Below, one piece after another: positions 16,983 to 42,785 of a stretch of 64,000 bases of DNA. The translations under genes were made by a program, and so were the position numbers. Below the pieces are notes generated by a model. It had not been told where the DNA came from. It saw only the letters and a program-made list of their open reading frames with translations, and ran no database searches. Source of the stretch: a virus; IMG/VR virus record IMGVR_UViG_3300020463_000014, positions 1-64,000 of that record; one strand, 5' to 3'. Each line of letters begins with the position of its first letter. Positions within the stretch are counted from its first letter, which is position 1.

Positions 16983-18356
16983 TTAATTCCAACCAAAAGA
17001 TCCATTTCCAGTGAATGAATAATATGTATAAGTTCCAACTGTTGTTATTGTAGGAGATCCAGTTACATTTTGTGGTTGCGTTTTTGCAGTTAATACTCTA
17101 AATCTTACTGTCCCATCAGCACCAGCTGCAGGCGATCCACTACTATTAAACATACCTCCACCACCTGAACCCGTATTTGCCGCACCTGATGATGCTGTAG
17201 ATGCTGGACCACTTGTACCACCAACTCCGGATGCACTTGTAGTTGTTCCATATTTCTGTGCTCCAGAGCCACCAGCAGCGTACCAGTTCCCATCTACCCA
17301 TTGTTTACCAATACCACCGGCACCACCAGTATTATGAGAGCCATTACCTCCAGCCCCTCCAGCACCACCGCCACCGCCAGAACCTGGATCACCACTAGTA
17401 AAATTACCACCAGTATTTCTATAACCAGGCGGAGTCTGAAGGTCGGTTGGAGTTCTAAGATTTGCAGCTGGATTACTACTACCACCAGTAGAACCACCAG
17501 CACTTACTGCAGCTTGATAACCATAGCCAGGACCAGCACCACCGCCACCAGATTGTATGTCTGTAGATGCATCAGATGCTAGTACACGACTTAATGTTCC
17601 TGGGTTTGCTGGACCTTGCGAACCACTCCATCCAGTAACGGCAGCGCCTCCAGTCCCAACTGTGACAGCGTATGTAACACCTGCAACTGGAACTAATGTA
17701 CTTTCTCTATATTCACCAGCACCACCGCCACCGCCGTGGCGCATAGCTCCAGAGCCGCCACCACCAACAATTAATAAATCAATTGTTGGTATGAATGCTA
17801 ATGTAAATGCACTTACAGTACTAACTGATCCATTGATTCCATCATTAACATTAAATGTAATGCTAAAAGTTCCCGCATCTGATTCTGATGAAGATGGAGT
17901 TATTGTAAATACATTATCAGCCTGAGCCACTGTTGCTGTACTACCAAGAGAACCTGTTGTAACTGCATAAGACCAAGTTAAAGCAAATCCTTCTGGATCA
18001 GTTGACACCGCAGTAATTACGGTTGGAGTTGCATCTTGTGTTAGTGCATACGTAGCATCAACTCCAGTAATTGCAGTTGGAGATGCATTTGTAACAGTAG
18101 CAATAATAAACCAACCAACTCCATTATAAACATATATTTTATTAGTGGCAGTAACTAACACTGTATCACCAGTATTCATTCCTGTTAATGTTGCAAGATC
18201 ATTAAATGATGCTACCACAGATTGTCCACTTGCACCTGCACCCATACCTGCTGAAGATATTTTTCTATTAGAAGCAGGTGTTGAAGCTTCAGCTACTGAT
18301 GCTAAAGCTCCAGATTTTCCAAATGCTCTTGAGATAAGAGATGCTCTCGATACCAT
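16983..18356 (-). CDS. Glycine-rich adhesin-like virion protein, 457 aa
   Basis: A 457-aa protein. Residues about 40-90 resemble a short fibre-tip domain (TGDTVLVTATNKIYVYNGVG), residues 90-190 a cadherin-like beta domain (ITPSSSESDAGTFSITFNVN). From about 195 to 430 it is extremely glycine-rich, with DLLIVGGGGSGAMRHGGGGG, GSGGGGGAGGAGGNGSHN and GSGGGGMFNSSG. Polyglycine stretches of this kind form packed PII-helix sandwiches in receptor-binding adhesins such as gp38 of phage S16 and T2. A host-recognition role is therefore likely but inferred. A ribosome site, AAAGGAC, precedes the ATG, 12 bases after the end of the giant fibre gene. Confidence 0.82.
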   Translation of the reverse strand: MVSRASLISRAFGKSGALASVAEASTPASNRKISSAGMGAGASGQSVVASFNDLATLTGMNTGDTVLVTATNKIYVYNGVGWFIIATVTNASPTAITGVDATYALTQDATPTVITAVSTDPEGFALTWSYAVTTGSLGSTATVAQADNVFTITPSSSESDAGTFSITFNVNDGINGSVSTVSAFTLAFIPTIDLLIVGGGGSGAMRHGGGGGAGEYRESTLVPVAGVTYAVTVGTGGAAVTGWSGSQGPANPGTLSRVLASDASTDIQSGGGGAGPGYGYQAAVSAGGSTGGSSNPAANLRTPTDLQTPPGYRNTGGNFTSGDPGSGGGGGAGGAGGNGSHNTGGAGGIGKQWVDGNWYAAGGSGAQKYGTTTSASGVGGTSGPASTASSGAANTGSGGGGMFNSSGSPAAGADGTVRFRVLTAKTQPQNVTGSPTITTVGTYTYYSFTGNGSFGWN

Positions 18357-18368
18357 TACTTTTGTCCT

Positions 18369-21300
18369 TTATTTTTCTGTAAATAACCAACCATTAGCCA
18401 CATTATAATATACCAATCCAAACGCAGCTCTATTAACATCAATTGTTAAATCTGAATCAGTACCTTCAATTTTATGACCATTTCTTCCAATTGTAATAGC
18501 GTTTGTAGAAGCTTGTCCTGTTCCATCAATAATTCTAACTTCATCTCCAAGCGTTGCTGTTGCTGGAAGATTAACTGTTTTAGCAGTACTTGTATCAACA
18601 ATTAATCTTTGACCAGCAGTTAATGTTAATGGTGTTGTAGTAACCTCTATCCAAGTATCAGGAGCAGTGGATGATGGTGTTCTTGCTATAACGTACGCAC
18701 TATCAACTAAATTAAATAGAGCCTGGGCATCTACTGTAACATTTGAAGCTTTATTTTCAATTGCAGTAATTACAATTTCATCAGATGTAGAAGCACCAGA
18801 CGTTAGCGTAATAGTATTTGTTATTGGATTAGATGCAAAGTCATCTGAATCCATAAGTTTAATACCATTTTGGAATACATTAAAGTTACTTGAATCAATT
18901 CCTAATGTTTTAGAATTAGCATCAGCACCAGTAAACACTGTTTGACCGTTTGTAGCGATAAACTTAAAGGTGTTCATAAATGTATCGCCAACAACTATAT
19001 GCGATTGTGTAACAGTTTGTGATAAAGTATTAATTACAAGATCATCACCTGAGTCAGCAGTAAATCCATTTAATGTTACTGAATTTGCTGCAGCATTAAC
19101 TGTATAATCTACACCAGATACTAATCGAATACCATTATTAAATACTTGATAATTAGCAGTATCAATTGCAAGAGCTGCACCGTTAGCATCATTTCCAGAG
19201 AATACTGTTTGACCAGAATCTGCTACATAATAATAATTAGCAAAGTTAACAGCATTTGTAAATGTTCCACCCGATGTTCTAGCTTCAATGTATGCGCTAT
19301 CAATCATTCCAGTTACAGCAGCTGAATCTGTACCTGCTGGTAACACACCTGGAGCCCAATAACTATTTGAGTTATCCCAAATTAATATCTGACCTTCAGT
19401 TGGCGCAGTTGTATGAACATCAGCTAATGAAGTAATTGAAGATGTATTATCTAATTTTGTTCCAAGAGCTGTTGCTGTAGTAGCAGCATAATTCGCATCA
19501 TCGCCAAGAGCGGCAGCTAATTCATTTAAAGTATTTAATGTAGCAGGAGCAGCATCTACTAGAGCGGCAACTGCCGAATCAACTGAAGATGAAACTGCAG
19601 CTCCAAGAACATTACCCGTTGGTGATGTAGTTAATGTTTGAATAATTACATCATCTGAATCAGCAGCAGCTAATGTTAAAGTAACAGTATTAGTACTAGC
19701 GTTAACATTATAATCTTCAACTCTATTTAAACGAATACCATTTATGAATACTTGATGATTACTATCTGTTATTGATAGAGATTGTGAATTAAGATCATTG
19801 CCAGTAAATGCCGTTTGGCCAGCTGTTGCTCTAAACTTATAGTCTTTAAAATTAGCTTGACCAGCTACAATGTAGTTAGCTTTAGCGCCAGTGCTAATAT
19901 TAGTTATGACTAAATCATCTCCAACATTTGCTCCAGTAGTAAGAACAACTGCTGTTTTTCCAGATACTGTATAATCAATATCTTTAAGAAGGTGAATACC
20001 ATTTAAATATACTTGAATTCCAGTAGCAGTTACTGCAAGAGTATTACCAGCAACATCTGCGCCACTATATGTTGTTTGGTTAGCAGTTGCAGTAAATCTA
20101 AAGTTAGAATATTCAGATGAAACTGCAGCACCACTAGAAGTTTGTCTTGCTTGAATATAATCGCTATCAATTAAAGCTATTATTGCTGCACTATCTGCAG
20201 AACCTCCACCACTTGCGACAGTACCTGGAATCCAGCTACTTGTTCCAGCATCATATACTAATGCTTGACCATCTGTTGGAGATGAATAAGTAACATCTGT
20301 AAGCCCACCAAGTGTTGTTACACCAGCTGAAGATCTTGCAAGGATATAATCACTATCAATTAACTGAAGAACTTCAGCAGAATCAAATGATGATAATATT
20401 TGTCTTGCTTGAACATATGCTGAATCAACCATTCCACTTACAGCTGAACTATCAATACCAGCCGGAACAACTCTTGCTTGGACATATGCTGAATCGATAA
20501 GAGTAATTGCTTTATCAGAATCTAATTTTGATCCAATAAGAGCAGTAATAGTAGTTGCAAAGTTTTCATCATTTCCAAGTGCAGTTGCAAACTCATTTAA
20601 AGTATCCATTGCAGCTGGAGCGCCATCAATTAAGTTATTAATAGCGGTTGTAATATCAGCACCAGAAGCAAGATCTATCCAGGCTCCGGCATGGGCAAAA
20701 TATGCTTTGCCAGTTGCGTGTACATGAGCAAACATACCGTGATAAGATGAAGCACTTGGAAGATCACCTAATGTTGCATAAACATTAGAATATAGGATCT
20801 TATTTGCGCCCATGTCCAGATCTTTACCAGTAATATTGCTATCTACTCTAGCATCTGTGTAATAAAGATTTGAACCTTCAGCTAATTGACCAGTATTTGC
20901 TCCACTTAGATCAAGCGCAGTTGCAACTCCAAGAGAATCAGTAGTAAGGAATACTCCTCCACTATCTTTAAGTCTTAATCCACCAAGATGAATAGTTGAA
21001 CCGCTTATATACAAATCTTTCCATGCAGCAGTTGGGCTACCAAGATCATATAACTTATCTCCACCTGGAAGAATAGTATTGAACGTTACATTAGTATTTT
21101 CTAATGGAATAGCAGTCCAAGATCCACCTTTAGATATTCTTGCTTTATTATCACTTGTTGTTACTGCAGTCATACCAGGATATGTTACAGGATTTGGTAA
21201 TGATCCAGCAGCAGCTCCTACAGACTTAAAGGTAATTTGATGCGGGCCAAAATCAACTGGTCGGCTACCTATTCCAGTTATTAGATCAACATGAGCACTA

Positions 21301-24300
21301 TCAACGATGCCTTTAATATAATCTGAATCTGCGATTGACTTAACATAATCACTATCAGCAATTGACTTAATATAGTCAGAATCTGCGATCGACTTAACAT
21401 AATCACTATCAGCAATTGATTTAATATAGTCACTATCAGCAATTGATTTAATATAGTCACTATCAGCAATAAACTTAATGTAATCTGAATCCGCAATTGA
21501 TTTGATATAATCTGAATCAGCTATGCCTTTAATGTAATCTGAATCTGCGATACCTTTAATATAATCACTATCAGCTACAAATTTTATATAGTCTGAATCT
21601 GCGATACCTTTAATATAATCACTATCAGCTACAAACTTGATATAGTCTGAATCTGCAATTAATTTGACATAATCACTATCAGCTACAAACTTGATATAGT
21701 CACTATCAGCTACAAACTTGATATAGTCTGAATCGATAATAAATTTAAAATGATCTGAATCAAGTTTACCAGAAGCAGTTAAATCTTCTTTTTGAACTCT
21801 AATATTAACAAAATTAGAATCTAATACTGATGTAAAAATATCTTGACCATCAATATAATACGACATACCTGCAGCAACATTAATACCGTCTTTTAATCCA
21901 CCACCAACAATATCTGTACCAACATTGATTGCATATAAACTACCAGGAGAATTATGATCAATACCAATACCAGATCTGCTACCAGTTGCAGCTGGCAAAT
22001 ATACTGTACCACCAAAAGTTTGTACTAATGGAGATTCAGTTTCTAATTTAACAAAACTGCCACTTGGTTGCTTTATTTTAATATCGCCATCAACTTGAAG
22101 ATCTCCATCAACAATATTGACAATACCTTTAATATTCATGGTATATGCAGGATCAAAGTTAGTACGTACACCCATTCTAAATAAGTTAGATGGTTCTGAT
22201 GCTTTTTGCGAGACATTTTTCTGGAAAGCATAATTTGATGTTTCACTTGCAATTAAAGACACTGCTTCGGCAGAATCTAAGAATCTATCGTCGTCAATTA
22301 AAGCATTAATATAATTTGCATTAATTACACCCTGATATGTTTCATACTGATTAAATCCATAATTTTGTTGTCTTGCAAAAATATAATCAGAATCAAAGAA
22401 ATGTGTCGCAGAATCAGGATCAATGAAGAATTGAGCAACCTGGTGTGTAAGATAAACTTGATTGCCTTGATTTGAATCAAGAATTCTATCACCTTGCCAA
22501 TATAGTGATTGTACATTAACACTACCATTAACATCTAAATTATATCCAGGTGTAGCTGTGTTAATACCAACTCTTGGAGCAGTTGTATGAAGATAACCAG
22601 ATCCAGCTGTATTATAAAAATACTGAGATGCTGGCATACTTGCACGATAATGTGATGTATCAATATGTGACCGAACATAAGTAGCATTAGCATTTGCTCT
22701 AATCCATGCTTGGTTAGCAACATCCTGTTGAATATATTGATATAACGGTTTGGTATTAATAGCAATATTACTTGTAAAGTTTGCTAAATCTTGAACATCT
22801 AATCCATATGTTGCTCCAGCAGCTACTTTACCAATTGCTACTGCGCCACCCATGATAGACAGTGTATTATTAGCAGATACAGTATTAGTATTTGCATCCA
22901 AACCAATTCCAATGGAACCTTCGCCTGTAGCTTTAATTTTTCTACCAATAGCAACAGAACCTACGCCTGTGGCTTCTACTTCGGTACCTAATGTGATACC
23001 ACCATTTGCAGCTACAGTAGTAATACCAATGCCAATGCCACCTAAAGTTGCTTGGTTACCTTCACCAAATCCATATGCCTTTGTTGTAGTGCCATCGACA
23101 ATATTAGCAAATCCATAAGCAAAAGCTTCATTATCAACTGTATTCGAATGCCCGAACGCATAACCAAAATCAGTTATTGTATTGTCTCTACCGTATGCAT
23201 CTCCACCATCAGTAATTATATTATTTGATCCATAAATATTACCGCCGCCGGTTTGCTGGTTTATCCCACCAAAGATATATCCACCATTTGCAGATGCAGC
23301 AGAACCAGCACCAGAACCAAAGTTTCCGCTGCCGTAGATTTTAATATCATAGAAATCTTTATTATCATCACCAAAAATATTAGAAAGTTGTTTAAAGTTT
23401 TTATTATTATCACCATATGCTGCTGTATTGTCTATAAGGCTTTCATTACCATCACCCCAAACCTTTGACTGTTTGTTAATGCTTTTATTATTATCACCAT
23501 GGACTGTGGCTTCATCAATAGAAGTATTATTTCTACCAGCTACAAAGTTGCTTCTAGAAACACTATTACTTCTACCGAAAACTGTAGCATTATTGCCATT
23601 TGTTGTATTTCCGTAACCAATTCCAACAGAGTTATTACCTCTTACTACATTAGATCGACCCATGGCCACGGCACTATTACCCATGCCTTCTGAACTAATA
23701 CCAATTCCAATACCTGAAGCTCCAGATTTTACTGATGTACCAAAAGAAACACCACCAGTTCCTGTTGTAGTATTAATACCAACACTAAATCCATTTGTTC
23801 CAGCATTAGCAGTATGTCCAATTGCAACTCCATTATTGCTAGCTGAGCTATTTACTCCAATTACCAAACTATTAGTACCAACAGTACCAGTATTATCTCT
23901 ACCAATATTTAAAGCGCCCTGGCCACCTTTGAGGTTATATCCTATTACAACAGAATTTCTTGCGGTGTTAGTAAGCTTATTACCAATAGCAGTATTTTTG
24001 AAACAATCATTATGATTACCAGGATCACCAGTAATTTCTTTACCAATTACAACACCAATACCAGTTTCTAGATCTTTACCGATAGCAATTCCGCCGTCAA
24101 GTGTAATTCCAGTCCCGGTTCGACCTGTATTTGTAATTTCAAGACCAATAGATACTGATTTTTGCTTATTGCTGTTTGTAATATCTTTACCAAGAGCAAC
24201 GCTAAATTGACCTGGATTAGTAACAGTATGTCCTACTGAAACTGATGCAGTAGTATGAAGAGGACCTTTTGATATTCCAACATAAGATACATTACCAGCT

Positions 24301-27300
24301 TTTGCGTCATAACCAATAGCCGTTGAATAATCAGTAGCTAAAGTATTATAGCCAATGCCTTGTGATTGATAACCAACTTCATTACTATCCCATGTTACAT
24401 TTGTTCCATCAACTTCACCAGCTCTGAAAGCGCCATATTCTGGGATCCACATAAGTCTTGAACCAGCACCAATTTGAGTACCAGTTTTACTTAATGGAAC
24501 AACACCAGCTTTTGGATGTTGAGCAATAGTTGCAATATTTGAGCTAAGGAATAATACATTACCAGAATCCACTGCAAATCTTGTTGTTGGATCATTTGGA
24601 TGAATAGTATTCTTTTGACCAACAATTACAGCACCTTCTTCATCATAATAAATTTGTTGATTACCACCTGCTGGACCTATTCTATTCCAAGGAGTAATTA
24701 ATCTTTCGCCAATATAAGTTGAATCTATAACTCTCATAAGGTTAGAATCGAAAGATCTTCCAATATAAGGATTAACTAAATTAAAACCTAGCGCTGAATC
24801 ATAAGAAGATGGATAATAAGGGCCAAAATAGAATTCAGCGCTATCTCCGGCCGTCATAGTTTGATTAGTATTATCCCAAAGTAGTCCGCCATTAATTACT
24901 CTATAATCAGAATCAGCTCTGCGAGTACCACCAAATAATAACCCGCCGTTTTGTATTTTAGCAATTTTACCGTCTACAGTAAATCCAGTTTTAAATATTG
25001 CACTATCTTTAAATGTAAATTGAGTATTCGTCTGAGCGGAACCACTATCTTCACCAGTAGCACTTTTGCTACTTGTAATATTAAGATTACCACTTAAGGT
25101 AATAGGTGGATTTTCTAATTGAAACCCTGATGCTACTGTAAGAGGACCTCTAACTGTAAGTGACGCATCATTCTTTCTACTTCTTGCTTCAACTCTAATT
25201 ACATCATTTAATTTTAATCTTGTATTTGCGGTAGAGTCAAAGATATGAATAAGACTATTAGATACTTCTTCCCATTTTTCTCCATCTGATTCAAGTTCAA
25301 CACCATTAATATATACTTTTGTTAGACCATTTTTAACATAGTTAAGAATTTTACTTGGGCTTGAGTTGTCACTATCTTGAAGTCTCAAAGCAGTAAGATT
25401 TGGAGTACCTTTAAGAGATGTTATTTGGTGATGCAGTCCTCTATTATCAATTCTAATATCTGTTATACTAGAAGTATTTAATCGAGGTGTGCCTGTACCC
25501 CATTGAGGAAGTGATGCTAGCCTTAATTCAATAGTATTGGTTCCAGTTACTACAAAATCTCCAGTTTGGACGCCGAGAGCTGCGCTTCCTGTACCATGCT
25601 GTAAACCTCCAGCTTGCAGTGGACCTACAGAATCGCCTATAGCAGACCAAGTACCAGGTCTAAATGATACTACAATATGACTATCATCTAAAGCTGGACC
25701 AGGTATTCCAATTATAGTAATTGAAGAATCACCGAGTGGTAAATTGGTATCTGTTCCGGATGCGATTGCAAGAAATGATGCTAAAGTTCCATCAGTATTA
25801 CTAATGGTTTTATGACCTCTTGAAACTACATAGCTATCAGCATGATCAATCGTAGGATCTTGATTATCAATAAAATTAAATATAAATGTATCGTCTGGTG
25901 TTATTGTATGTCCTTCAATAAGGCTATGTCCACCAGCACTAAATCCAGAATCAACTCTTACATCACCTTTAACATATAATCTAGATCCTGGATGATCAAT
26001 AGGAGCACTATCTGCACCAATTGCAACTTGAGTTTCAGCATTAAATCCAACACCACCAAAATAAAGAGTATGACCATCAACAGATCTTCTCCAATGTGAA
26101 CTATCATTAGCATTATGAAGAATATAGTTAGGACTAATAACAGTTTTCAGATAACCAGAATCGATAACAGAAGCAATTACTGCTGAGTCAATGTTCATTC
26201 TATCTTTTACATAATCATTAGTAACAATTGTTGCAATATAGTCTTGAGTTGGCCAAGCGACCTGAGTACCTTGAGCAGATGTAGTAATAATAGGAGATTT
26301 ATGATCAATTGCGGCTTGTAAAGAAGCATTATCTTCTGCAGGCCTATTTCCTAAAGATGCGCCTGCTACCTGATAATTTGGAAGATCAATGCGAGCTTTA
26401 CCAAGAACATCAAGCGAAAATTTCTTATACTGTATTCCATCAACAATATCTTTATAAGCTATATCACCTACACTAACATCATTTCTAGCAATTGTAACAG
26501 CATTACCTTGTGGAATGTCTGCAGCAAGAGATGCATCTGGTTGAAAGTTAATAAGTTGATCGCCCTCTTTTAAGGCCCAGAAATTATCAATAGAAACTCT
26601 TGCTTGAACATATGCGGAATCTAGATGATTTTCTAGAATTGGAATAAGTCCACCAGTTGGTCTTACAACAAAACTGTCAAATGACATTCTTTCGCCAGTA
26701 CCAGGATTATCACCAATTGTAAATGTACTACCTGAAACAGATTGTCTAAAATGAATTGAGCCTTCTACAGTAGCGCTATCACCGACAGTTAATTTTCCAA
26801 TTACATTTAAATCAGCGCTTGGTGTAGTAGCTACAGCTGGAACAACTTGAGCATAAAGTGCTGATGATGTATCAAATGTTCCGCTGTAATCTGTGGTAGT
26901 AACTGGTTGAGTTAATGCTTGATCGTGAAATAATTCAAATACATTAGTATTAGTTATATTTCCAGTTCCATCATCTGGTCCAACAAAGAAAGTAATTGCA
27001 TCAATAATACCAGCGGGTGATGTAATATTAACTCCTTGGAATCGAACAGCATCGCCTATTACTAAACCATGAGTGCCACCGCTTGGTAAAGTAACTTCTG
27101 TTTTTGTGGCAAATGCAGCAATAGTAAAATTTGATACTAAGGCTGCAACATTTATAACTTCATAGGTACCATTGACCGTATATATACTAGGTTCGCTTGA
27201 CATATCAAGTGCTACTGTACATGCTCTATCAGTAAATAAATTAAATGTATTCGCATCAACTGCCTGAACAAAATATATATTATCGGCTGTGCTATTATAA

Positions 27301-30300
27301 TTAAAACTACTAGAAGTTCCAGAAGTACTATCAGTCTCAACATTAACAAATTTAATAGCTAATCCGCTACCTGGGCCACCTGCAGTAGCCATCGAACTGG
27401 ATGGTGCAAGTTTATGACCACCGAGTGGAGTTACTGTTAAATTATTGTAGGGAGTATTTGCTGTTACACTTCCATTTCCACTAGTGGCGTCAATATTAAT
27501 AGTAAATCCATCGGGAAATGTAGAAACTGGTGTTGTAACTTGTGTATGTGTAACAATAACAGTCGGGGCTGTGCCTTTAATAAAGTCTTTGATATTCACA
27601 TCACCAATATAAAGTGTAGCACCACTATCAATATTTACATCACCATGAATGTCAAGAGTATAATTTGGATTAAATCCAGAAGCATATTTTGCAGTATTAT
27701 TATGAGGTCTCTTAGCAGTTTTACCAATCATAATATTGGTATTATTTAAACCTTTATTTACATAATTACTATCAATAATATTAGTACCAGAATCATTAAA
27801 GATCTCTGGCTTCATAATTACAATGCCATTAGTTAATCCAGTTGGAATGAATGTATTACCACCAATGAATATAGTCTTATTAGCAGTACCACCTACTACA
27901 GTTCCGCCATACTGCGCATTTGCTCCAGTTGTGTGTGAATCTTTCCAACCTGTACCAATTACAATATTATTAGCACTAGTATTATTAAGAAGACTATTAT
28001 CTTTACCAATTACATAATTATTATCTCCAGCGTTATCAAGTATATTACCTTCACCAATAATAATTGATTTATTAGCAGCCTTTGGAGCAGTATTAGATAA
28101 TCCAAATTTATTATCAATACCAAATGCATAAAGTTGAGTTCCAGTGTTGTTTGAATCTTGTAAATTACCTTCACCTAGGAACATGTTTTGATCTGTTATG
28201 ATTTCATTACTTTTACCAATCGCAATGGAATGATGACCCAAGTTGCCTGTTCGGCCAAGAGTCTGTTGACCTTTACTTACTCTTTGTCCAACTCTATTTT
28301 TATAACCAAGAGATACAGAAGCTCTTCCTTTGGCATAGGGTTGTTCACCCATTCCCATAGAAAAATAGCCTAAATCAGAATTTTGATGTTCACCTAAATC
28401 TATTTTACCAGCTCTTACTATAGCAGCTCTTGAGCTATATAAGAACATATTATTATATGTAAGACTTGCTGGCCCACCATCAGAATCAAATACTGCCGAA
28501 TCACCCGCATCATATAAAGTACTTTTTAGAATACCATCAACTTGAAAATCACCACGAACATCAAACTCAGTATTAGGATCTGTTTTTTGTACACCTATAT
28601 TTCTTGGCGCAGCTGTAAGAATAAATCTTCCATCATCTACAAATGGATTGCCGGCAATTGGAGCGCCACCTTCCGGATTGTTCTGAAAAATATTTCCGCC
28701 ATATATAATATTGCCGCCAACAAATAAGTTACCCGCACCGTCAATGGCATCAAACATATCAGATTCTCTACCAATTGATACGTTACCACCTTGAATAGCC
28801 ATAAGGTTATCATCTACAACAACACCCGGTATTGTTCTATTTGGATTACCTATGAGATCTGCACCAGCTCCATATATAGGAGTAGTAGTGACCATTTGAA
28901 AATTTATGCTTTTATTAGCAGTATTAGCAATGTGGCCATTCATACCAAATGCGTAAGAACTTTGTCCTGAGACTATATTTTCTCTACCAAATGCAAACGC
29001 ATCGCCGCCACCAACTTTATTATAAGAGCCAATTGCAAACGATAAAGCACCACCAACAGAATCTTCCACACCGAAAGCAAAACCAGCATTACTTTGAGCT
29101 GTGTTGTTTTGTCCAAGTAGAAAATTAAAATTGCCACCGGCCGATTTATTGCCAAGACCAATAAATACTTGTTCTTTACCACCATTTGATACAATATTGC
29201 TTTTACCTAAAATAAATGTATCATCACCCTTTGCAGCGTTTTCTGCACCAAGTAAAACATTTCTATCACCACCATCAGAATTGTTTGATCCAATACCAAC
29301 TGAATATATACCAGTTATTTTATTTTTGAAACCCATAGCAATAGAAGCAAGCCCGGCGGCTCGACTACTATCACCAGTTGCAAAGCTACTTTGACCAGAA
29401 GCTTTAACATTTAAACCAAAGGCTGCTGAAAAAAGACCTAACTCATCCCAAGCAAAATCCTTATGGTTTGTAAAGTATCCACCACGCGTTGATGCTTTTC
29501 CTGGAACAAACGAAAATCTAGATCCTTTAGCTGAATCAGCAAGAGCGCTTAGTGACGGATCGCCGTAATTAATTACAAGATCATGCGCCATAGAAATCTC
29601 GCCAGAGATAGCATCATTATAGTCTGCGCTTTGTGGAATTGATCCAACTCCTTGAAAGCCACCTTTTACCTGAAATGGCCCTCCATGAACTTCGAACCTA
29701 GATTTAGGTTTATCTGTACCAACTGCAATTCTACCAAATCCACCATATGGATAAGTTGCTTTAAAATCTCTTGGAACAAAAAATGCATCGTCTAGAGCGG
29801 TAGCAGTAAATAATCCACCACCTGTAAATGGTACACCATTTTGTAAGAGCTCGCCAGTAAAGTTAATACTACCATCTTTATGAACTTCAAATAAAGAACT
29901 ATCTTCAAGTGATATAGCTCTTATTAAAACTGAAACATCTGAATCGTTAGCGCTAACTCCATCACCTGGAAATCTTCTAAGATCTCTTCCACTATCTTTA
30001 TGTAAATCACTTTTAAAATAGTTAATAGGTAGAGTAGAAGTTAATGAATATTTACGCCCTGCAAATTCGGTAGAGTCACCATCAGTAGTTACGGTTAAAC
30101 CATAAAAGTCTCTGGCTTGAGAATCATTAGGATAAATTATTGAGTTTGGATCAATTGTTAACAATCCAGGTTTTGATTTGTATGAACCTACTTTAACTCC
30201 TGCAGCATCAACTACACCTGTATTCTTATCAACAACAAATCTATACCAGCCAGAATCTTGTATGATTTGTTCTGCAACCATAAGACCAAATCGAGTACCA

Positions 30301-31895
30301 TTAGCTCTATCAGTTTTTTCACCGTAAAATAATTCTCCACCTTCAATAGAGTCTAAATTGCCAGAAGTTAAAACAGAACCCGGAAGTAAATCTGTAACTC
30401 TTAAATTTTTAAACATTGCTGGAGAATATGATACTATTTCTCCAGTTGGCTTAATAGTTAAACCTTTAAAGCTACCTTGAGTATGCCCAATTTTTAAACC
30501 ATTGGTCGAATCATACATGAAATCTGAATCGCCGCCAAGTGTTTTGTCAGTGTTAACAAATGGAACTGTACCAGGTGCAAGTGATGTGCCTGGCGCATCA
30601 AATTCTAATCTATTGACTCTAAGAAAATCAACATCGCCAGAATCCGCTCTAAAGTATTTAAAATATGCTGAGTCAGCTTGTAAATCTTTATTATAAAAAA
30701 GTCTATTTGTTGTCCAATAATTTTCGTATTGTGTTCCAGCAGCCCCGGCCTGCCAGGTAAAAGCTGCTCCAACTGGACCACCAACTGTAATACCTGCCCC
30801 AGATGCAAATGCAGAATCTGCCGCAGAATCTGCTAAAAGAATATTAGTATCTTTAATAACGACTTCTGTAGATCTAACAGATGTCATTTGACCAGCAACA
30901 AATAAGTCACCTTTAATATTTACCCGACCTTCGGGTGCTCCAAACGGAAATGGATCAATATTAATTACACCTGGTCCACGATATTCTGGGCTATGTGCAA
31001 TATTGAAACTATGATATACGGAATGACCACTATCAACATCAAGTTGACTAATATATGCATTTGTTATTTTTGCAGAATCAGCATCAAATTGGCCAATATA
31101 ACCAGAATCAGCGCTTATTCTCGAAATATATGCGCTATCAACATCTAACTGGCTAATATATGCGCTATCACCTTTTAATCTTGAAATGAATGCGCTATCA
31201 ACATCAAGTTGACTGATATAGGCACTATCACCTTTCAATCTAGAAATAAATGCTGAGTCTACATCTAACTGGCTAATATAGGCACTATCACCTTTCAATC
31301 TAGAAATAAATGCTGAGTCTACATCTAACTGGCTAATATAAGCCGAATCTGACATTAATCTTGAAATGAATGCGCTATCAACATCAAGTTGACTGATATA
31401 TGCCGAGTCAACCATCAATCGACTAATATAACCACTATCAACATCAAGTTGTAAAATATGAGATGAGTCAGCAGTTAGTCTTGAAATGTATGCTGAATCT
31501 ACGTCCAATTTCCATATAAATGCAGAATCTGCTGTTAAACGTTTTAAATGTGCGCTATCAACATCTAAATCTTTAATATGAGCTGAGTCTGCAGTCAGTC
31601 CATGAACGTATAATAGATCAACTGCTCTTTCTGAATCAAGAAGAAGAAATTTATTTCCAACAGCAATACCAGGATTTCCTGCTGTCTCCAAGAGAGTCAT
31701 GAATTTTTCACCACCAATAGCCGCTACTCGACTTGCTATTTGAGGAACTGCAAGTGAATCAACAGCTGGCCCAATGCCGGCATATAAAACTCCACCATTA
31801 ATACTATCATAATATGAATATGCAAGTTCACCTAGTGCTAAACTTGAAGGGGTAGCTTGTGTGCCTGATCTCTTAATCTGGATTATAGATGCCAT
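18369..31895 (-). CDS. 4508-aa giant fibre protein with two repeat arrays and trimeric-adhesin-like heads
   Basis: One uninterrupted 13.5-kb frame. The N-terminus (IQIKRSGTQA, SLALGELAYSYYDS) is the attachment-type motif of marine T4-like fibres. Residues 103-272 are 17 ten-residue units (DSAYISQLDV, DSAFISRLKG). YadA-like head repeats (xAIGxxxxA) occur near residues 820-1000, 1150-1330 and 2500-3030, for example STAIGYDAKAG and NSVGIGYGNT. Residues about 3379-3540 are 18 nine-residue units (DSDYIKFVA). About 3920-4390 hold four homologous beta domains ending near VFxNGIxL plus a strand, and the C-terminus ends NVANGWLFTEK. The architecture is that of a very long, probably trimeric, fibre. 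It has a late promoter and AGGTTG before the ATG. No frameshift is visible. Confidence 0.9.
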   Translation of the reverse strand: MASIIQIKRSGTQATPSSLALGELAYSYYDSINGGVLYAGIGPAVDSLAVPQIASRVAAIGGEKFMTLLETAGNPGIAVGNKFLLLDSERAVDLLYVHGLTADSAHIKDLDVDSAHLKRLTADSAFIWKLDVDSAYISRLTADSSHILQLDVDSGYISRLMVDSAYISQLDVDSAFISRLMSDSAYISQLDVDSAFISRLKGDSAYISQLDVDSAFISRLKGDSAYISQLDVDSAFISRLKGDSAYISQLDVDSAYISRISADSGYIGQFDADSAKITNAYISQLDVDSGHSVYHSFNIAHSPEYRGPGVINIDPFPFGAPEGRVNIKGDLFVAGQMTSVRSTEVVIKDTNILLADSAADSAFASGAGITVGGPVGAAFTWQAGAAGTQYENYWTTNRLFYNKDLQADSAYFKYFRADSGDVDFLRVNRLEFDAPGTSLAPGTVPFVNTDKTLGGDSDFMYDSTNGLKIGHTQGSFKGLTIKPTGEIVSYSPAMFKNLRVTDLLPGSVLTSGNLDSIEGGELFYGEKTDRANGTRFGLMVAEQIIQDSGWYRFVVDKNTGVVDAAGVKVGSYKSKPGLLTIDPNSIIYPNDSQARDFYGLTVTTDGDSTEFAGRKYSLTSTLPINYFKSDLHKDSGRDLRRFPGDGVSANDSDVSVLIRAISLEDSSLFEVHKDGSINFTGELLQNGVPFTGGGLFTATALDDAFFVPRDFKATYPYGGFGRIAVGTDKPKSRFEVHGGPFQVKGGFQGVGSIPQSADYNDAISGEISMAHDLVINYGDPSLSALADSAKGSRFSFVPGKASTRGGYFTNHKDFAWDELGLFSAAFGLNVKASGQSSFATGDSSRAAGLASIAMGFKNKITGIYSVGIGSNNSDGGDRNVLLGAENAAKGDDTFILGKSNIVSNGGKEQVFIGLGNKSAGGNFNFLLGQNNTAQSNAGFAFGVEDSVGGALSFAIGSYNKVGGGDAFAFGRENIVSGQSSYAFGMNGHIANTANKSINFQMVTTTPIYGAGADLIGNPNRTIPGVVVDDNLMAIQGGNVSIGRESDMFDAIDGAGNLFVGGNIIYGGNIFQNNPEGGAPIAGNPFVDDGRFILTAAPRNIGVQKTDPNTEFDVRGDFQVDGILKSTLYDAGDSAVFDSDGGPASLTYNNMFLYSSRAAIVRAGKIDLGEHQNSDLGYFSMGMGEQPYAKGRASVSLGYKNRVGQRVSKGQQTLGRTGNLGHHSIAIGKSNEIITDQNMFLGEGNLQDSNNTGTQLYAFGIDNKFGLSNTAPKAANKSIIIGEGNILDNAGDNNYVIGKDNSLLNNTSANNIVIGTGWKDSHTTGANAQYGGTVVGGTANKTIFIGGNTFIPTGLTNGIVIMKPEIFNDSGTNIIDSNYVNKGLNNTNIMIGKTAKRPHNNTAKYASGFNPNYTLDIHGDVNIDSGATLYIGDVNIKDFIKGTAPTVIVTHTQVTTPVSTFPDGFTINIDATSGNGSVTANTPYNNLTVTPLGGHKLAPSSSMATAGGPGSGLAIKFVNVETDSTSGTSSSFNYNSTADNIYFVQAVDANTFNLFTDRACTVALDMSSEPSIYTVNGTYEVINVAALVSNFTIAAFATKTEVTLPSGGTHGLVIGDAVRFQGVNITSPAGIIDAITFFVGPDDGTGNITNTNVFELFHDQALTQPVTTTDYSGTFDTSSALYAQVVPAVATTPSADLNVIGKLTVGDSATVEGSIHFRQSVSGSTFTIGDNPGTGERMSFDSFVVRPTGGLIPILENHLDSAYVQARVSIDNFWALKEGDQLINFQPDASLAADIPQGNAVTIARNDVSVGDIAYKDIVDGIQYKKFSLDVLGKARIDLPNYQVAGASLGNRPAEDNASLQAAIDHKSPIITTSAQGTQVAWPTQDYIATIVTNDYVKDRMNIDSAVIASVIDSGYLKTVISPNYILHNANDSSHWRRSVDGHTLYFGGVGFNAETQVAIGADSAPIDHPGSRLYVKGDVRVDSGFSAGGHSLIEGHTITPDDTFIFNFIDNQDPTIDHADSYVVSRGHKTISNTDGTLASFLAIASGTDTNLPLGDSSITIIGIPGPALDDSHIVVSFRPGTWSAIGDSVGPLQAGGLQHGTGSAALGVQTGDFVVTGTNTIELRLASLPQWGTGTPRLNTSSITDIRIDNRGLHHQITSLKGTPNLTALRLQDSDNSSPSKILNYVKNGLTKVYINGVELESDGEKWEEVSNSLIHIFDSTANTRLKLNDVIRVEARSRKNDASLTVRGPLTVASGFQLENPPITLSGNLNITSSKSATGEDSGSAQTNTQFTFKDSAIFKTGFTVDGKIAKIQNGGLLFGGTRRADSDYRVINGGLLWDNTNQTMTAGDSAEFYFGPYYPSSYDSALGFNLVNPYIGRSFDSNLMRVIDSTYIGERLITPWNRIGPAGGNQQIYYDEEGAVIVGQKNTIHPNDPTTRFAVDSGNVLFLSSNIATIAQHPKAGVVPLSKTGTQIGAGSRLMWIPEYGAFRAGEVDGTNVTWDSNEVGYQSQGIGYNTLATDYSTAIGYDAKAGNVSYVGISKGPLHTTASVSVGHTVTNPGQFSVALGKDITNSNKQKSVSIGLEITNTGRTGTGITLDGGIAIGKDLETGIGVVIGKEITGDPGNHNDCFKNTAIGNKLTNTARNSVVIGYNLKGGQGALNIGRDNTGTVGTNSLVIGVNSSASNNGVAIGHTANAGTNGFSVGINTTTGTGGVSFGTSVKSGASGIGIGISSEGMGNSAVAMGRSNVVRGNNSVGIGYGNTTNGNNATVFGRSNSVSRSNFVAGRNNTSIDEATVHGDNNKSINKQSKVWGDGNESLIDNTAAYGDNNKNFKQLSNIFGDDNKDFYDIKIYGSGNFGSGAGSAASANGGYIFGGINQQTGGGNIYGSNNIITDGGDAYGRDNTITDFGYAFGHSNTVDNEAFAYGFANIVDGTTTKAYGFGEGNQATLGGIGIGITTVAANGGITLGTEVEATGVGSVAIGRKIKATGEGSIGIGLDANTNTVSANNTLSIMGGAVAIGKVAAGATYGLDVQDLANFTSNIAINTKPLYQYIQQDVANQAWIRANANATYVRSHIDTSHYRASMPASQYFYNTAGSGYLHTTAPRVGINTATPGYNLDVNGSVNVQSLYWQGDRILDSNQGNQVYLTHQVAQFFIDPDSATHFFDSDYIFARQQNYGFNQYETYQGVINANYINALIDDDRFLDSAEAVSLIASETSNYAFQKNVSQKASEPSNLFRMGVRTNFDPAYTMNIKGIVNIVDGDLQVDGDIKIKQPSGSFVKLETESPLVQTFGGTVYLPAATGSRSGIGIDHNSPGSLYAINVGTDIVGGGLKDGINVAAGMSYYIDGQDIFTSVLDSNFVNIRVQKEDLTASGKLDSDHFKFIIDSDYIKFVADSDYIKFVADSDYVKLIADSDYIKFVADSDYIKGIADSDYIKFVADSDYIKGIADSDYIKGIADSDYIKSIADSDYIKFIADSDYIKSIADSDYIKSIADSDYVKSIADSDYIKSIADSDYVKSIADSDYIKGIVDSAHVDLITGIGSRPVDFGPHQITFKSVGAAAGSLPNPVTYPGMTAVTTSDNKARISKGGSWTAIPLENTNVTFNTILPGGDKLYDLGSPTAAWKDLYISGSTIHLGGLRLKDSGGVFLTTDSLGVATALDLSGANTGQLAEGSNLYYTDARVDSNITGKDLDMGANKILYSNVYATLGDLPSASSYHGMFAHVHATGKAYFAHAGAWIDLASGADITTAINNLIDGAPAAMDTLNEFATALGNDENFATTITALIGSKLDSDKAITLIDSAYVQARVVPAGIDSSAVSGMVDSAYVQARQILSSFDSAEVLQLIDSDYILARSSAGVTTLGGLTDVTYSSPTDGQALVYDAGTSSWIPGTVASGGGSADSAAIIALIDSDYIQARQTSSGAAVSSEYSNFRFTATANQTTYSGADVAGNTLAVTATGIQVYLNGIHLLKDIDYTVSGKTAVVLTTGANVGDDLVITNISTGAKANYIVAGQANFKDYKFRATAGQTAFTGNDLNSQSLSITDSNHQVFINGIRLNRVEDYNVNASTNTVTLTLAAADSDDVIIQTLTTSPTGNVLGAAVSSSVDSAVAALVDAAPATLNTLNELAAALGDDANYAATTATALGTKLDNTSSITSLADVHTTAPTEGQILIWDNSNSYWAPGVLPAGTDSAAVTGMIDSAYIEARTSGGTFTNAVNFANYYYVADSGQTVFSGNDANGAALAIDTANYQVFNNGIRLVSGVDYTVNAAANSVTLNGFTADSGDDLVINTLSQTVTQSHIVVGDTFMNTFKFIATNGQTVFTGADANSKTLGIDSSNFNVFQNGIKLMDSDDFASNPITNTITLTSGASTSDEIVITAIENKASNVTVDAQALFNLVDSAYVIARTPSSTAPDTWIEVTTTPLTLTAGQRLIVDTSTAKTVNLPATATLGDEVRIIDGTGQASTNAITIGRNGHKIEGTDSDLTIDVNRAAFGLVYYNVANGWLFTEK
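21276..21761 (-). repeat. Array of 18 in-frame 27-bp repeats (nine-residue units)
   Basis: Coding tandem array inside the giant fibre gene. Each unit encodes nine residues of the form DSDYIKxxA. Sixteen units contain DSDY; the outer two are degenerate (DSDHFKFII and DSAHVDLIT). Variation is concentrated at positions 7-8 (FV, GI, SI, LI). Serine codons alternate between TCA and AGT types between units, so protein sequence is conserved more than DNA. Nine-residue periodicity differs from the ten-residue array at the N-terminus. Confidence 0.9.
31080..31589 (-). repeat. Array of 17 in-frame 30-bp repeats (ten-residue units)
   Basis: Coding tandem array near the N-terminus of the giant fibre protein. 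Units alternate between DSAYISQLDV and DSAFISRLKG types, giving a higher-order period of 20 residues (60 bp). The two 60-bp units at 31201-31320 are nearly identical at the DNA level, which suggests recent unequal duplication. An irregular 15-residue unit and one more half unit follow downstream. Confidence 0.9.
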
Positions 31896-31935: not shown

Positions 31936-31943
31936 TATTTATA
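31936..31943 (-). promoter_or_regulatory. T4-type late promoter for the giant fibre gene
   Basis: Exact TATAAATA on the minus strand, 41 bases before the ATG at 31895, in the 53-base gap after the 79-aa gene. Confidence 0.72.
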
Positions 31944-31948
31944 TGATT

Positions 31949-32188
31949 TTAGAAGGTATCTCCACCATCTACTATTTGCCCTTGATTTAAATGTTTTGTA
32001 GCTGTCCATTTTTCGGTTACACCATTAAATGCAATCATTGTTCCTTCTGGAATTTGCCCTGCGCCAATAGCAGTATCACTTACATCTCTAAGACTATTTC
32101 TAATTCTAATTTCTTTAATAGCTGGAAGAGGAGTTCCAACTTTAATATTTTTAACGATTGTACGATTTGATGTTATTTTAATTGCCAT
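31949..32188 (-). CDS. Small virion-module protein, 79 aa
   Basis: A 79-aa protein starting MAIKITSNRTIVKNIKVGTP. It has two predicted beta stretches and the segment IPEGTMIAFNGVTEKWTATK, which resembles the fibre-surface beta domains of marine myoviruses. AGGATAA precedes the ATG. It lies between a 129-aa small protein and the giant fibre gene, transcribed with the former. A fibre attachment or assembly role is plausible from position. No named family. Confidence 0.75.
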   Translation of the reverse strand: MAIKITSNRTIVKNIKVGTPLPAIKEIRIRNSLRDVSDTAIGAGQIPEGTMIAFNGVTEKWTATKHLNQGQIVDGGDTF

Positions 32189-32197
32189 ATCGTTATC

Positions 32198-32587
32198 CTA
32201 TGTTGTTACTTGAGGAGAAAGTGTTAATTTTCCTTCTAGTATTCTTTCAACTACACCTAATCCTGTATTACTATCTGTTCCTTCTAACTCAACATCATAC
32301 ACATATCTACCAGCTTTCATACGGGTTGTTTGTGCATTTGTTAATGATAGTTGTAAAATATTTTCTTGATTAAGTGGGTTAAATGCTGTAACGTTAAATA
32401 ATTCAGCTGAATCTGTAGAATTATAGCTTTTTTTAATCTTACCTCTCATGAGATAATATGATCCAAACGTACCAGCATCTGAATCCCAATTGATTAAAAG
32501 TTTTCTACTTCCATCAGGATTAAATAATTCAAGTTGGATAGTAACGTCTGATCCTTGGTCGATTGTTAAGTCTTCGTAGTGTGCCAT
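32198..32587 (-). CDS. Small beta-rich virion-module protein, 129 aa
   Basis: The frame extends to a GTG at 32593, but that GTG overlaps the ribosome site AAGAGGTG, so the ATG at 32587 is preferred and gives MAHYEDLTIDQGSDVTIQLE. The sequence then has two beta-sheet halves (YYLMRGKIKKSYNSTD, TRMKAGRYVYDVELEG). Similar proteins with the EDLTIDQGSD start occur beside fibre genes in marine T4-like phages. It is the first gene of the fibre unit and has two tandem late promoter motifs upstream. Its exact role is unknown. Confidence 0.8.
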   Translation of the reverse strand: MAHYEDLTIDQGSDVTIQLELFNPDGSRKLLINWDSDAGTFGSYYLMRGKIKKSYNSTDSAELFNVTAFNPLNQENILQLSLTNAQTTRMKAGRYVYDVELEGTDSNTGLGVVERILEGKLTLSPQVTT

Positions 32588-32611
32588 ACCCACCTCTTAT
32601 CTATTTTACTG

Positions 32612-33546: not shown

Positions 33547-33572
33547 AAAGAGCTCTTAGGAGCTCTTTTTTT
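33547..33572 (+). terminator. Rho-independent terminator of the plus-strand unit
   Basis: Nine-base stem AAAGAGCTC and GAGCTCTTT around a TTAG loop, followed by an uninterrupted T-run to 33572. It lies just after the 81-aa gene. The TAA stop of the converging 191-aa oxygenase gene sits in the loop, so the hairpin may also end minus-strand transcripts, although their T-run is weaker. Confidence 0.85.
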
Positions 33573-34131
33573 GTTTAATAAAAATATCGACTGGAACAGC
33601 CAGTCTGAGATTAGAATGATATGTTTTTACTAGATGATAAACATATCCTGGCATAATTATTACATCACCAGTTTTAGGTGCGTACTCAATAGGTTTAAAC
33701 ATTTCGGCGGTTTTACCAAAATAACCTCTATTGGCATTTGCTCTTGGATCATATGACACTAGTTCTCCACCTTTATCAATATCATCAGAAAGAACATAAA
33801 ATACTGCAGCAAATTGAGCTCCAGAATGATTATGAATATTCATTGAATATCCCTTTTGAGATCCTGTTAACCAAGAACTAAATTCGTAAGACATATCATT
33901 TAGGTCGATACTAAATACTTCTTTAAAAAATTCTGAATATTTTTCTATAGCCAAATCTTTTAACAATGGAATTTTATCTGTAAGTGAACCACTATCGTAT
34001 TCAGCCTGTGGTTTCATAATATTAGTACTAAGTAAAATTTCTTGAACTAATTCTTCACATTGGTCTAAAGTAATTTGAGTTTTGTATATTGGTGTGGACC
34101 AACACTGATTAATACCCGATTTCAACATCAT
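33556..34131 (-). CDS. 2OG-Fe(II) oxygenase-like protein, 191 aa
   Basis: Predicted 2-oxoglutarate and iron dependent oxygenase, last gene of the modification cassette. The double-stranded beta-helix core shows MNIHNHSGAQFAAVFYVLSD with His100 and His102, then GGELVSYDPR, then GDVIIMPGYVYHLV with distal His166, and Arg176 (NLRLAV) as likely 2OG-binding residue. This HxH...H...R pattern resembles the TIGR02466-type putative 2OG oxygenases rather than the classic HxD. The typical reaction is hydroxylation of a protein or small-molecule C-H bond; the substrate is unknown. AAAGGAT precedes the ATG. The gene overlaps its upstream neighbour by 23 bases. Confidence 0.85.
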   Translation of the reverse strand: MMLKSGINQCWSTPIYKTQITLDQCEELVQEILLSTNIMKPQAEYDSGSLTDKIPLLKDLAIEKYSEFFKEVFSIDLNDMSYEFSSWLTGSQKGYSMNIHNHSGAQFAAVFYVLSDDIDKGGELVSYDPRANANRGYFGKTAEMFKPIEYAPKTGDVIIMPGYVYHLVKTYHSNLRLAVPVDIFIKQKKSS

Positions 34132-34513
34132 AATATCCTTTTATGTCACGAACCATACCATGAATTACCATCAATGGCCAATCTATATTGTTAAGTATAC
34201 TATCGTATATTTCCTTACTATTTTCGTATGTTTTAAAATATGGATCATTACCGGCTAAAAGCATTGGTTCATTTAACAAATCATAAAAATCTTCGTTAAA
34301 ATCTCTACTAATCCAATAAGCATAACATATTGCTACAACATAACTCTTGGCTGGATATAACCACTCATCTACTTTCTCATTAAAGTGTCGAATAGCATTT
34401 TTAATAATGACCTCTTGATTATCGTCAAAAACTATTTCTACTTTATTCAAATCATCTGTATGATTTTTATTTAATCTATGATAAACTTCTTGTTTAACTT
34501 GCCATTCTTTCAT
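34109..34513 (-). CDS. Cassette protein of unknown function, 134 aa
   Basis: A 134-aa soluble, mostly helical-looking protein starting MKEWQVKQEVYHRLNKNHTD, with an aromatic patch (DEWLYPAKSYVVAICYAYWI near residues 49-68). No metal-binding motif is visible. It overlaps the upstream radical SAM gene by 20 bases and the downstream oxygenase gene by 23, so it is tightly built into the operon. Its ribosome site is weak, which fits coupled translation. It could be a substrate-binding partner or small accessory subunit for the neighbouring enzymes, but this rests on context alone. Confidence 0.72.
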   Translation of the reverse strand: MKEWQVKQEVYHRLNKNHTDDLNKVEIVFDDNQEVIIKNAIRHFNEKVDEWLYPAKSYVVAICYAYWISRDFNEDFYDLLNEPMLLAGNDPYFKTYENSKEIYDSILNNIDWPLMVIHGMVRDIKGYYDVEIGY

Positions 34514-35402
34514 GATACCAATCCAATAATCCTCTATATCCGTTACAGCTATTATTTAAATCTTTGACATATCGATAATGCTCTGTTAAGCAGTTTCCAA
34601 AATACTTACATGAGGCGCATATAGGACTTATCATTTCTTCTTTTTCTTTGTTTGTCCAATCAATGTATTGTTTCCAAGAATCCAATTCAAGAAAGAATTC
34701 TTTATCCTCTTCATCAAATTCCAAGACACCAAATTTGCCAGAAGGAGTGATGTATATATGATCATCCGAAAATGCATTGTATCTTCCTTTCACTGATTCT
34801 ATAATTCTATCTTCATTTACAAATTCAAACTTCATAGTGTCTTTTAACTTAAGCCACTTTATAACAAAATCTTCAAAGTCTTTGTGGGTCACGTTATGTG
34901 CATTTGCTTGATTTATTGAATATGGTTTAATCTCAACAGATGTAATTGACGAGCACATATTCAACATATTAATCATTTCAGATACATCTTTTTCTAGCAC
35001 CTTTGGAGAAGCTAAAATCAAAACTGCAATAGGTACTGTACTCATTAACATATTATTAAATACAAGTTCAGACTTTTCTCTTGCTTCAAAATCATATGAG
35101 ACAGAAAGATATACATCATCATCAAAAAAGCCTGGATGCATCATAGAATAATTAGTATTGATGCTAATTTCACCTGAATAATATTTTCTTATAACATCTT
35201 TAATACCATAAAAATATGACTTTTTCATTGCACCAACTTCACCACCATATAAGTCAATATGTTCTATATCTGGCACTTGAGATAGCAACTCATCTAGTTT
35301 ATCAAATGAAATTTGTTTCTGATCACCAAGTTGCTTAGTAGATAGGTAGCAAAAATCACATCTAAAATTACAAAAATATGAAGGATTGATCGATACAATC
35401 AT
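34494..35402 (-). CDS. Radical SAM protein with C-terminal cysteine cluster, 302 aa
   Basis: Radical SAM enzyme. The [4Fe-4S]-SAM motif is CNFRCDFC (Cys11, Cys15, Cys18), and the SAM-binding GGE is LYGGEVG at residues 50-56. A shortened C-terminal domain has PICASCKYFGNC followed by a final cysteine (NNSCNGY), consistent with a twitch- or SPASM-like auxiliary cluster. Such proteins modify peptides or proteins by radical chemistry. The start overlaps the upstream oxygenase stop by one base (TAATG). It pairs with that oxygenase in the alternating pattern of the cassette. Substrate unknown. Confidence 0.88.
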   Translation of the reverse strand: MIVSINPSYFCNFRCDFCYLSTKQLGDQKQISFDKLDELLSQVPDIEHIDLYGGEVGAMKKSYFYGIKDVIRKYYSGEISINTNYSMMHPGFFDDDVYLSVSYDFEAREKSELVFNNMLMSTVPIAVLILASPKVLEKDVSEMINMLNMCSSITSVEIKPYSINQANAHNVTHKDFEDFVIKWLKLKDTMKFEFVNEDRIIESVKGRYNAFSDDHIYITPSGKFGVLEFDEEDKEFFLELDSWKQYIDWTNKEKEEMISPICASCKYFGNCLTEHYRYVKDLNNSCNGYRGLLDWYHERMAS

Positions 35403-40383: not shown

Positions 40384-40416
40384 ATTTCATTCTATACATT
40401 ACAAATTAAAAAATAT

Positions 40417-42751: not shown

Positions 42752-42777
42752 TTCATTCCTCTTTTGTTATATACGTG

Positions 42778-42785
42778 TATTTATA
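42778..42785 (-). promoter_or_regulatory. T4-type late promoter for the CHxS-tailed gene
   Basis: Exact TATAAATA on the minus strand, 27 bases before the ATG at 42751. It overlaps the TAA stop of the upstream radical SAM gene. The same octamer precedes genes 13, 18, 25 and the fibre genes, so the candidate substrate and the downstream cassette genes are probably expressed with virion genes. Confidence 0.72.

What the first reader, a model, noticed from the sequence alone, without database searches (positions are those of the whole stretch)
18369..31895. One 4508-residue fibre protein fills a fifth of the window
The frame is unbroken for 13.5 kb and runs from a typical fibre N-terminus to a typical fibre C-terminus. 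It combines short-period arrays, three blocks of trimeric-adhesin-like head repeats and tandem C-terminal beta domains. If trimeric and extended, it would be among the longest phage fibres. The mosaic repeats suggest growth by duplication.
Basis: partly seen in the sequence, partly recalled or inferred. Interest (0 to 1): 0.72.

Follow-up and report, generated by a model that had tools for sequence, protein, structure and literature searches.

The report
Giant conserved phage tail-fibre gene
A marine T4-like phage really does carry a single 13.5-kb gene for a 4508-residue tail fibre, and the same giant gene recurs in at least nine other assembled phages, where it looks like a long boom whose far end is built to hold other parts rather than to grip the host itself.

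Summary
The frame is real. It lies on the minus strand (window 18369-31895, ATG to stop, 4508 aa, 474 kDa). Related frames without stops occur in independently assembled viral contigs: 4542, 4619, 4549, 4423, 4427, 5167 and 5747 aa, plus frames cut by contig ends. Two further relatives encode it as two genes (1003 + 3823 or 4062 aa). dN/dS against the nearest relatives is about 0.3. A T4 late-promoter word sits 40-48 nt before the ATG in every fused relative tested. The longest exact repeat is 65 bp, so a collapsed assembly is unlikely. The host is unknown.

Anatomy: N-module, 18 decads, three head-repeat blocks (two confirmed as YadA-type), 18 nonads matching the alpha/beta coiled-coil pattern, four gp10/TSP4-XD2-like jellyrolls, a final XD1 domain. 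Both arrays keep 18 units in most close relatives although the units are reshuffled, so their length looks fixed, not growing. Duplication did build the jellyrolls.

The C-terminus is a conserved docking-type module, not a variable tip. The adjacent 457-aa gene has a conserved N-terminus and three unrelated C-terminal alleles, so it is the better candidate for host recognition. Verdict: a new variant of a known kind. Trimerisation and length were not tested.

The parts
18369..31895 (-). giant tail-fibre gene, 4508 aa
   Evidence: open in relatives; dN/dS
31936..31943 (-). TATAAATA, T4-type late promoter word, 48 nt before the ATG
   Evidence: at 40-48 nt in all fused relatives tested and before the 1003-aa gene of the split relatives
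31602..31895 (-). N-terminal module (aa 1-98), presumed virion attachment
   Evidence: shared with the separate 1003-aa proteins of G013/G014 and with Mosig_68 of pelagiphage Mosig, 37%
31050..31589 (-). decad array, 18 x 10 aa (DSAYISRLxx)
   Evidence: AlphaFold2 all-beta, pLDDT mostly 60-81
28896..29450 (-). YadA-type head block 1 (aa 816-1000)
   Evidence: profile hits BpaC 7e-12, YadA 2e-8; AlphaFold2 beta, pLDDT up to 81
27696..28418 (-). head-like block 2 (aa about 1160-1400)
   Evidence: similar to blocks 1 and 3, E 1e-10 to 1e-6; no PDB hit
22776..24398 (-). YadA-type head block 3 (aa 2500-3040), with a hypervariable patch at about aa 2700-2900
   Evidence: BpaC 5e-15, a trimeric autotransporter adhesin 8e-10, YadA 4e-9; Pfam YadA_head in 5 of 6 members; patch
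21276..21761 (-). nonad array, 18 x 9 aa (IADSDYIKS)
   Evidence: AlphaFold2 pattern HHHHHHH-- but pLDDT about 42
19893..20117 (-). XD2-like jellyroll 1 (aa 3927-4001)
19629..19856 (-). XD2-like jellyroll 2 (aa 4014-4089); missing in G003 and G010
19017..19250 (-). XD2-like jellyroll 3 (aa 4216-4293)
18753..18983 (-). XD2-like jellyroll 4 (aa 4305-4381)
18372..18668 (-). C-terminal XD1 domain (aa 4410-4508)
   Evidence: phmmer to CBA120 TSP4 residues 94-175, E 1e-6
16983..18356 (-). adjacent 457-aa gene: conserved N-terminus, swapped C-terminus; candidate receptor-binding partner
   Evidence: phrog_2295
31949..32188 (-). 79-aa gene just upstream, conserved in synteny
   Evidence: phrog_13853
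32198..32593 (-). 131-aa gene, fibre-assembly family
   Evidence: phrog_3304 L-shaped tail fibre assembly; also in G008, G011, G013, G014, C48C1

Best explanation
A single late gene encodes the long tail fibre of a marine T4-like myovirus. Three copies probably wind into one very long fibre (inferred from the YadA heads and from the trimeric families whose modules it shares). The N-module fixes it to the virion (inferred from its recurrence at the start of a separate fibre protein in relatives). The decads, three head blocks and nonads form a shaft of set length (the fixed array counts are shown, the selection is inferred). The four XD2-like jellyrolls and the XD1 domain at the far end form a conserved docking platform (the folds are supported by sequence or prediction, the docking is inferred). 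The neighbouring 457-aa protein, with a conserved N-terminus and swappable C-terminus, probably docks there or nearby and supplies receptor specificity (allele swapping is shown, binding is not).
For: Structural neighbourhood: terminase, neck, baseplate wedge gp6, gp25 and gp8 families. Conserved late promoter. Frame and purifying selection. Tail-fibre PHROGs at the C-terminal modules. YadA heads. XD1 sequence match E 1e-6. XD2 fold match: Foldseek E 4e-6 and 6e-4 to TSP4 and T4 gp10; VIA Z 8.7, rmsd 1.6 A over 64 residues to TSP4. XD domains dock other trimers (PMC8825819) and five of them are assigned to fibre branching in RaK2 gp528 (PMC10253068). Conserved tip against swapped neighbour. 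Fixed array counts with reshuffled units. The split relatives keep the same upstream genes.
Against: No virion, proteomic or EM data. Both AlphaFold2 models are monomers with low mean pLDDT (42 and 44), so shaft structure is unproven. In CBA120 the XD domains lie near the baseplate, here at the far end, so the analogy may fail. The XD2 sequence profile reaches PDB relatives only weakly (best E 0.006). No binding partner was identified, and the XD models found no XD domain in other window proteins.
Confidence: 0.62

Rival explanations
1. The giant fibre carries its own receptor-binding sites: the XD2/XD1 jellyrolls or the variable patch in head block 3 bind host glycans or proteins, and the 457-aa gene is an unrelated tail part.
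For: XD1-type folds are glycan-binding modules in CpaA and StcE (PMC8825819). Head block 3 has a patch at 46% identity between genomes about 90% identical on both sides, as expected for a contact site.
Against: The C-terminal tip is highly conserved (94/99 in G008, 71/99 in a relative at 36% overall identity), while the neighbour has three unrelated C-terminal alleles.
Confidence: 0.25
2. The polyprotein is processed: one translation product is cut into proximal and distal fibre parts after synthesis, as the two-gene relatives suggest.
For: G013 and G014 encode the N-module and the rest as two proteins.
Against: No protease or auto-cleavage domain was seen in the Pfam scans; at least seven relatives keep one uninterrupted frame.
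Confidence: 0.1
3. Assembly artefact: repeats were wrongly joined to make one long frame.
For: Metagenome contigs with repeat arrays; no reads available.
Against: Independent contigs with the same order and array spans; longest exact repeat 65 bp; purifying selection.
Confidence: 0.03

Closest known systems
T4 long tail fibre (gp34-gp37)
   Same: T4-like phage, late promoter, presumed trimeric fibre of the tail (PMC3004832)
   Different: one gene of 4508 aa instead of four; YadA heads and 9/10-residue arrays; no gp34 or gp37 relation was found
CBA120 TSP4 / T4 gp10 XD domains, and RaK2 gp528
   Same: XD1 by sequence (E 1e-6); XD2-like jellyrolls by predicted fold; RaK2 gp528 likewise has several XD copies
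   Different: here at the C-terminal end, jellyrolls first and XD1 last, after a shaft of about 3900 residues
Trimeric autotransporter adhesins (YadA, BpaC, UspA1)
   Same: head repeats match by profile
   Different: no membrane anchor family found and no signal-like N-terminus; a phage virion gene
alpha/beta coiled coil of Tcar0761 (14 nonads, MATKDDIAN; PMC4786415)
   Same: period 9, aliphatic-A-x at the beta-layer, I/V at position a
   Different: sequence otherwise different; 18 units; structure not determined
Phage C48C1 (OQ984149) and pelagiphage Mosig fibres
   Same: related T4-like baseplate genes; large repetitive tail proteins (3347 aa in C48C1)
   Different: the C48C1 giant has other repeats and no detectable relation; Mosig fibres share only the N-module and C-terminal domains

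Membership tests
tail fibre of a T4-like phage | lies among late structural genes with T4-type late promoter | tested here: met
tail fibre of a T4-like phage | sequence relation to tail-fibre families | tested here: met
   PHROG tail-fibre families down to 3e-21, but only over the C-terminal part (aa about 3700-4030)
tail fibre of a T4-like phage | trimeric, extended, attached to the baseplate | not testable with these tools
   needs EM or structure
trimeric autotransporter adhesin | YadA-type head | tested here: met
trimeric autotransporter adhesin | C-terminal membrane anchor and export signal | tested here: not met
   C-terminus is XD1; no YadA anchor in the Pfam scans; N-terminus MASIIQIKRSG is not signal-like by inspection
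XD module of T4 gp10 / CBA120 TSP4 | XD1 sequence relation | tested here: met
   E 1e-6 to 7rfv
XD module of T4 gp10 / CBA120 TSP4 | XD2 jellyroll | tested here: inconclusive
   predicted fold matches: VIA Z 8.7, rmsd 1.6 A, 64 aligned to 7rfv; tied 9d84 Z 8.5, 1.7 A, 65; sequence profile only E 0.006-0.09
XD module of T4 gp10 / CBA120 TSP4 | TSP4 order AD-XD1-XD2-XD3 at the N-terminus | tested here: not met
   order is XD2-like x4 then XD1, at the C-terminus
alpha/beta coiled coil | nonads with aliphatic first and small second beta-layer residue and hydrophobic a position | tested here: met
   191 units: position 1 mostly I/V, position 2 A in 145, position 7 I/V in 190; rule from PMC4786415
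alpha/beta coiled coil | alternating helix and beta-layer in a parallel trimer | tested here: inconclusive
   monomer model shows 7 helical + 2 other residues per unit at pLDDT about 42

The most novel reading that the evidence does not exclude
A one-gene tail boom of about 150-250 nm with a length set by fixed-count repeat arrays (18 decads, 18 nonads, the latter an alpha/beta coiled coil) and a distal XD docking platform that carries exchangeable receptor-binding proteins, so that host range changes without touching the boom.
Probability: 0.3. Interest if true: 0.68.

Novelty: new variant of a known kind. Interest (0 to 1): 0.5.

Why it matters
It shows that fibre genes of 4 to 6 thousand codons are a stable, selected feature of a group of uncultured marine T4-like phages rather than an oddity of one assembly. 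The one-gene and two-gene forms at the same spot let one test how multi-part fibres fuse or split. The fixed 18-unit arrays, with reshuffled units, make a molecular-ruler idea testable. The conserved platform beside a swapped neighbour gene suggests where host range is decided.

Tried and rejected
The plus-strand reading is full of stops. Pfam hits of the nonads to Med31 and Plasmodium HRP are below or barely above cut-off and come from short-period repeats: rejected. Pentapeptide-repeat identity of the decads: only E 0.3 to designed proteins; the predicted all-beta model aligns best to a tailspike (6e1r, Z 14.0, 3.5 A, 210 aligned) but also to other solenoids such as LRR proteins, and Foldseek itself gave E about 1: fold left open. 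Head block 2 against PDB: no hit. The first 965 residues found nothing in annotated phages at 1e-5. Looking for XD domains in other window proteins: none at threshold. psbA as a sign of a cyanobacterial host: absent from 12 records; host stays unknown. Paper searches found no report of this fibre family; the open-access library is incomplete. The C48C1 giant protein as a homologue: no relation.

Full report
OBSERVATION. The reported frame is real but on the minus strand: ATG at 31895, stop at 18369-18371, 4508 aa, 474 kDa, pI 4.7. The window is part of a 76,239-bp IMG/VR record and encodes a T4-like virion module: terminase, neck proteins, gp25, gp6, gp8 and hub families. The gp6-like protein is closest among annotated phages to phage C48C1 (40%) and pelagiphage HTVC008M (33%). 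The host is unknown.

IS IT AN ARTEFACT? Searching IMG/VR with the C-terminal and N-terminal parts brought relatives from other metagenomes. Uninterrupted frames: G005 4619, G004 4549, G008 4542, G001 4423, G003 4427, G011 5167, G006 5747 aa; G002 (4237+), G009 (2799+) and G010 (3809+) are cut by contig ends. Identities to the window protein are 86, 85, 84, 66, 66, 57 and 36% for G005, G004, G008, G001, G003, G002 and G006. Overall dN/dS is 0.099/0.288 against G005 and 0.102/0.385 against G004. The longest exact repeat inside the gene is 65 bp. TATAAATA, the T4 late-promoter word, begins 40-48 nt before the ATG in all nine fused genes whose start was checked, the window included. By count alone this word is not enriched in the window (14 found, 16 expected), so the weight lies in the conserved position.

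SPLIT RELATIVES. G013 and G014 have the same two small upstream genes and promoter word, then a 1003-aa gene that begins with the N-module and a 3823- or 4062-aa gene that matches the rest of the shaft; no promoter word precedes the second gene. So the fibre exists as one chain and as two. Which form is older is not decided.

ARRAYS. The decad unit is L-D-V-D-S-A-Y-I-S-R-like, the nonad I-A-D-S-D-Y-I-K-S. Landmark to landmark, the nonad array spans 153 residues in 6 of 6 close relatives and the decad array 193 in 5 of 6 (198 in G003). Yet unit i of one genome is the best match of unit i in another for only 3 to 8 of 18 nonads, except in the closest pair (15 of 18); outer units match best. Exchange between units without change of number is the simple reading; selection on length is inference. 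The distant G006 has other counts.

NONAD STRUCTURE. In Tcar0761 the nonad MATKDDIAN gives three beta-layer residues, then efg and abc (PMC4786415). Set against it, IAD / SDY / IKS puts I or V at beta-1, A at beta-2 (145 of 191) and I/V at a (190 of 191). The monomer AlphaFold2 model shows seven helical and two other residues per unit, at pLDDT near 42. This fits but does not prove an alpha/beta coiled coil. I claim likeness, not common descent.

HEADS. The A2 profile (aa 2480-3100) finds BpaC (5e-15), a trimeric autotransporter adhesin (8e-10), YadA (4e-9) and UspA1 (3e-6); A4 (aa 690-1100) finds BpaC (7e-12) and YadA (2e-8). Block 2 is similar to both others but found nothing in the PDB. Inside block 3, aa 2700-2900 is 46-50% identical between the window and G005, with dS near 1 against about 0.2-0.4 in the adjoining stretches: probably a local allele exchange.

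C-TERMINUS. Four jellyroll copies precede the last domain. Their models (pLDDT about 60-86) match CBA120 TSP4 (Foldseek 4e-6), Klebsiella phage KP1 baseplate (5e-7) and T4 gp10 (6e-4); VIA gives Z 8.7, 1.6 A, 64 residues to TSP4 and tied values for other phage attachment domains including T7 tail proteins. The last 99 residues match TSP4 residues 94-175, within its XD1, at E 1e-6 by sequence. In TSP4 the XD2 and XD3 domains bind other tailspikes, in gp10 they bind gp11 and gp12, and XD1 appears to act as a spacer (PMC8825819); RaK2 gp528, with five XD domains, is assigned to fibre branching (PMC10253068). Copy number is 4 in most of the window's near relatives, 3 in G003 and G010 (both lack copy 2 by the tree), 1 in the distant ones. 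This is evidence for growth by module duplication and later loss.

THE NEIGHBOUR. The 457-aa gene that follows after 12 bp has a homologous first 200 residues in all seven genomes compared (43-100%), but its C-terminal part comes in three sets with no detectable similarity: G000/G004/G005, G001/G003/G010, and G008. The fibre tip next to it is 94/99 identical between G000 and G008. A conserved dock with swapped ends is how receptor-binding proteins usually vary (general knowledge); that it docks on the fibre is inference.

MECHANISM. Shown: one conserved late gene; module order; fixed array counts; conserved tip; swapped neighbour. Inferred: trimer, attachment by the N-module, docking, host recognition by the neighbour. 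Length: T4 gp34 (1289 aa) makes about half of a 144-nm fibre (PMC3004832), about 0.055 nm per residue, so 4508 residues could reach about 250 nm; compact heads would shorten this, so I give 150-250 nm as a rough guess.

NOVELTY. Every module type is known. The combination, the size, the distal XD platform and the conserved array counts are new to me, and no paper in the library searched describes them. Large repetitive tail proteins are known in related phages (3347 aa in C48C1), so I call it a new variant of a known kind.

Noticed in passing
window 33556-44281 (-): A cassette of radical SAM proteins (one with a B12-binding domain), 2OG-Fe(II) oxygenases and a JmjC/cupin protein sits inside the tail module; it might modify virion or host molecules.
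   Followed up: partly
window 16983-18356 (-): Neighbour gene with conserved N-terminus and three unrelated C-terminal alleles among relatives.
   Followed up: yes
window 59537-61771 (-): 744-aa protein in the baseplate-hub region carries an amidase domain (phrog_822, E 9e-24), unlike the T4 tail lysozyme.
   Followed up: no
L212 3439-18645 and L213 1870-16359: Relatives with the fibre split in two genes at the same spot.
   Followed up: yes
L181 29012-39055 (OQ984149 141011-151054): Phage C48C1 has an unrelated 3347-aa protein of GNYxG/TYSR repeats annotated as hypothetical.
   Followed up: partly
Blautia phage Montmirail ON453898 13072-13533: The only annotated phage hit of the nonad array (23% over 154 aa, E 4e-12), in a hypothetical protein; may be shared period only.
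   Followed up: no
window, 14 sites on the minus strand: TATAAATA occurs 14 times, all on the coding strand, often 26-79 nt before genes.
   Followed up: partly
window 22776-24398 (-): Hypervariable patch inside head block 3, aa 2700-2900.
   Followed up: partly
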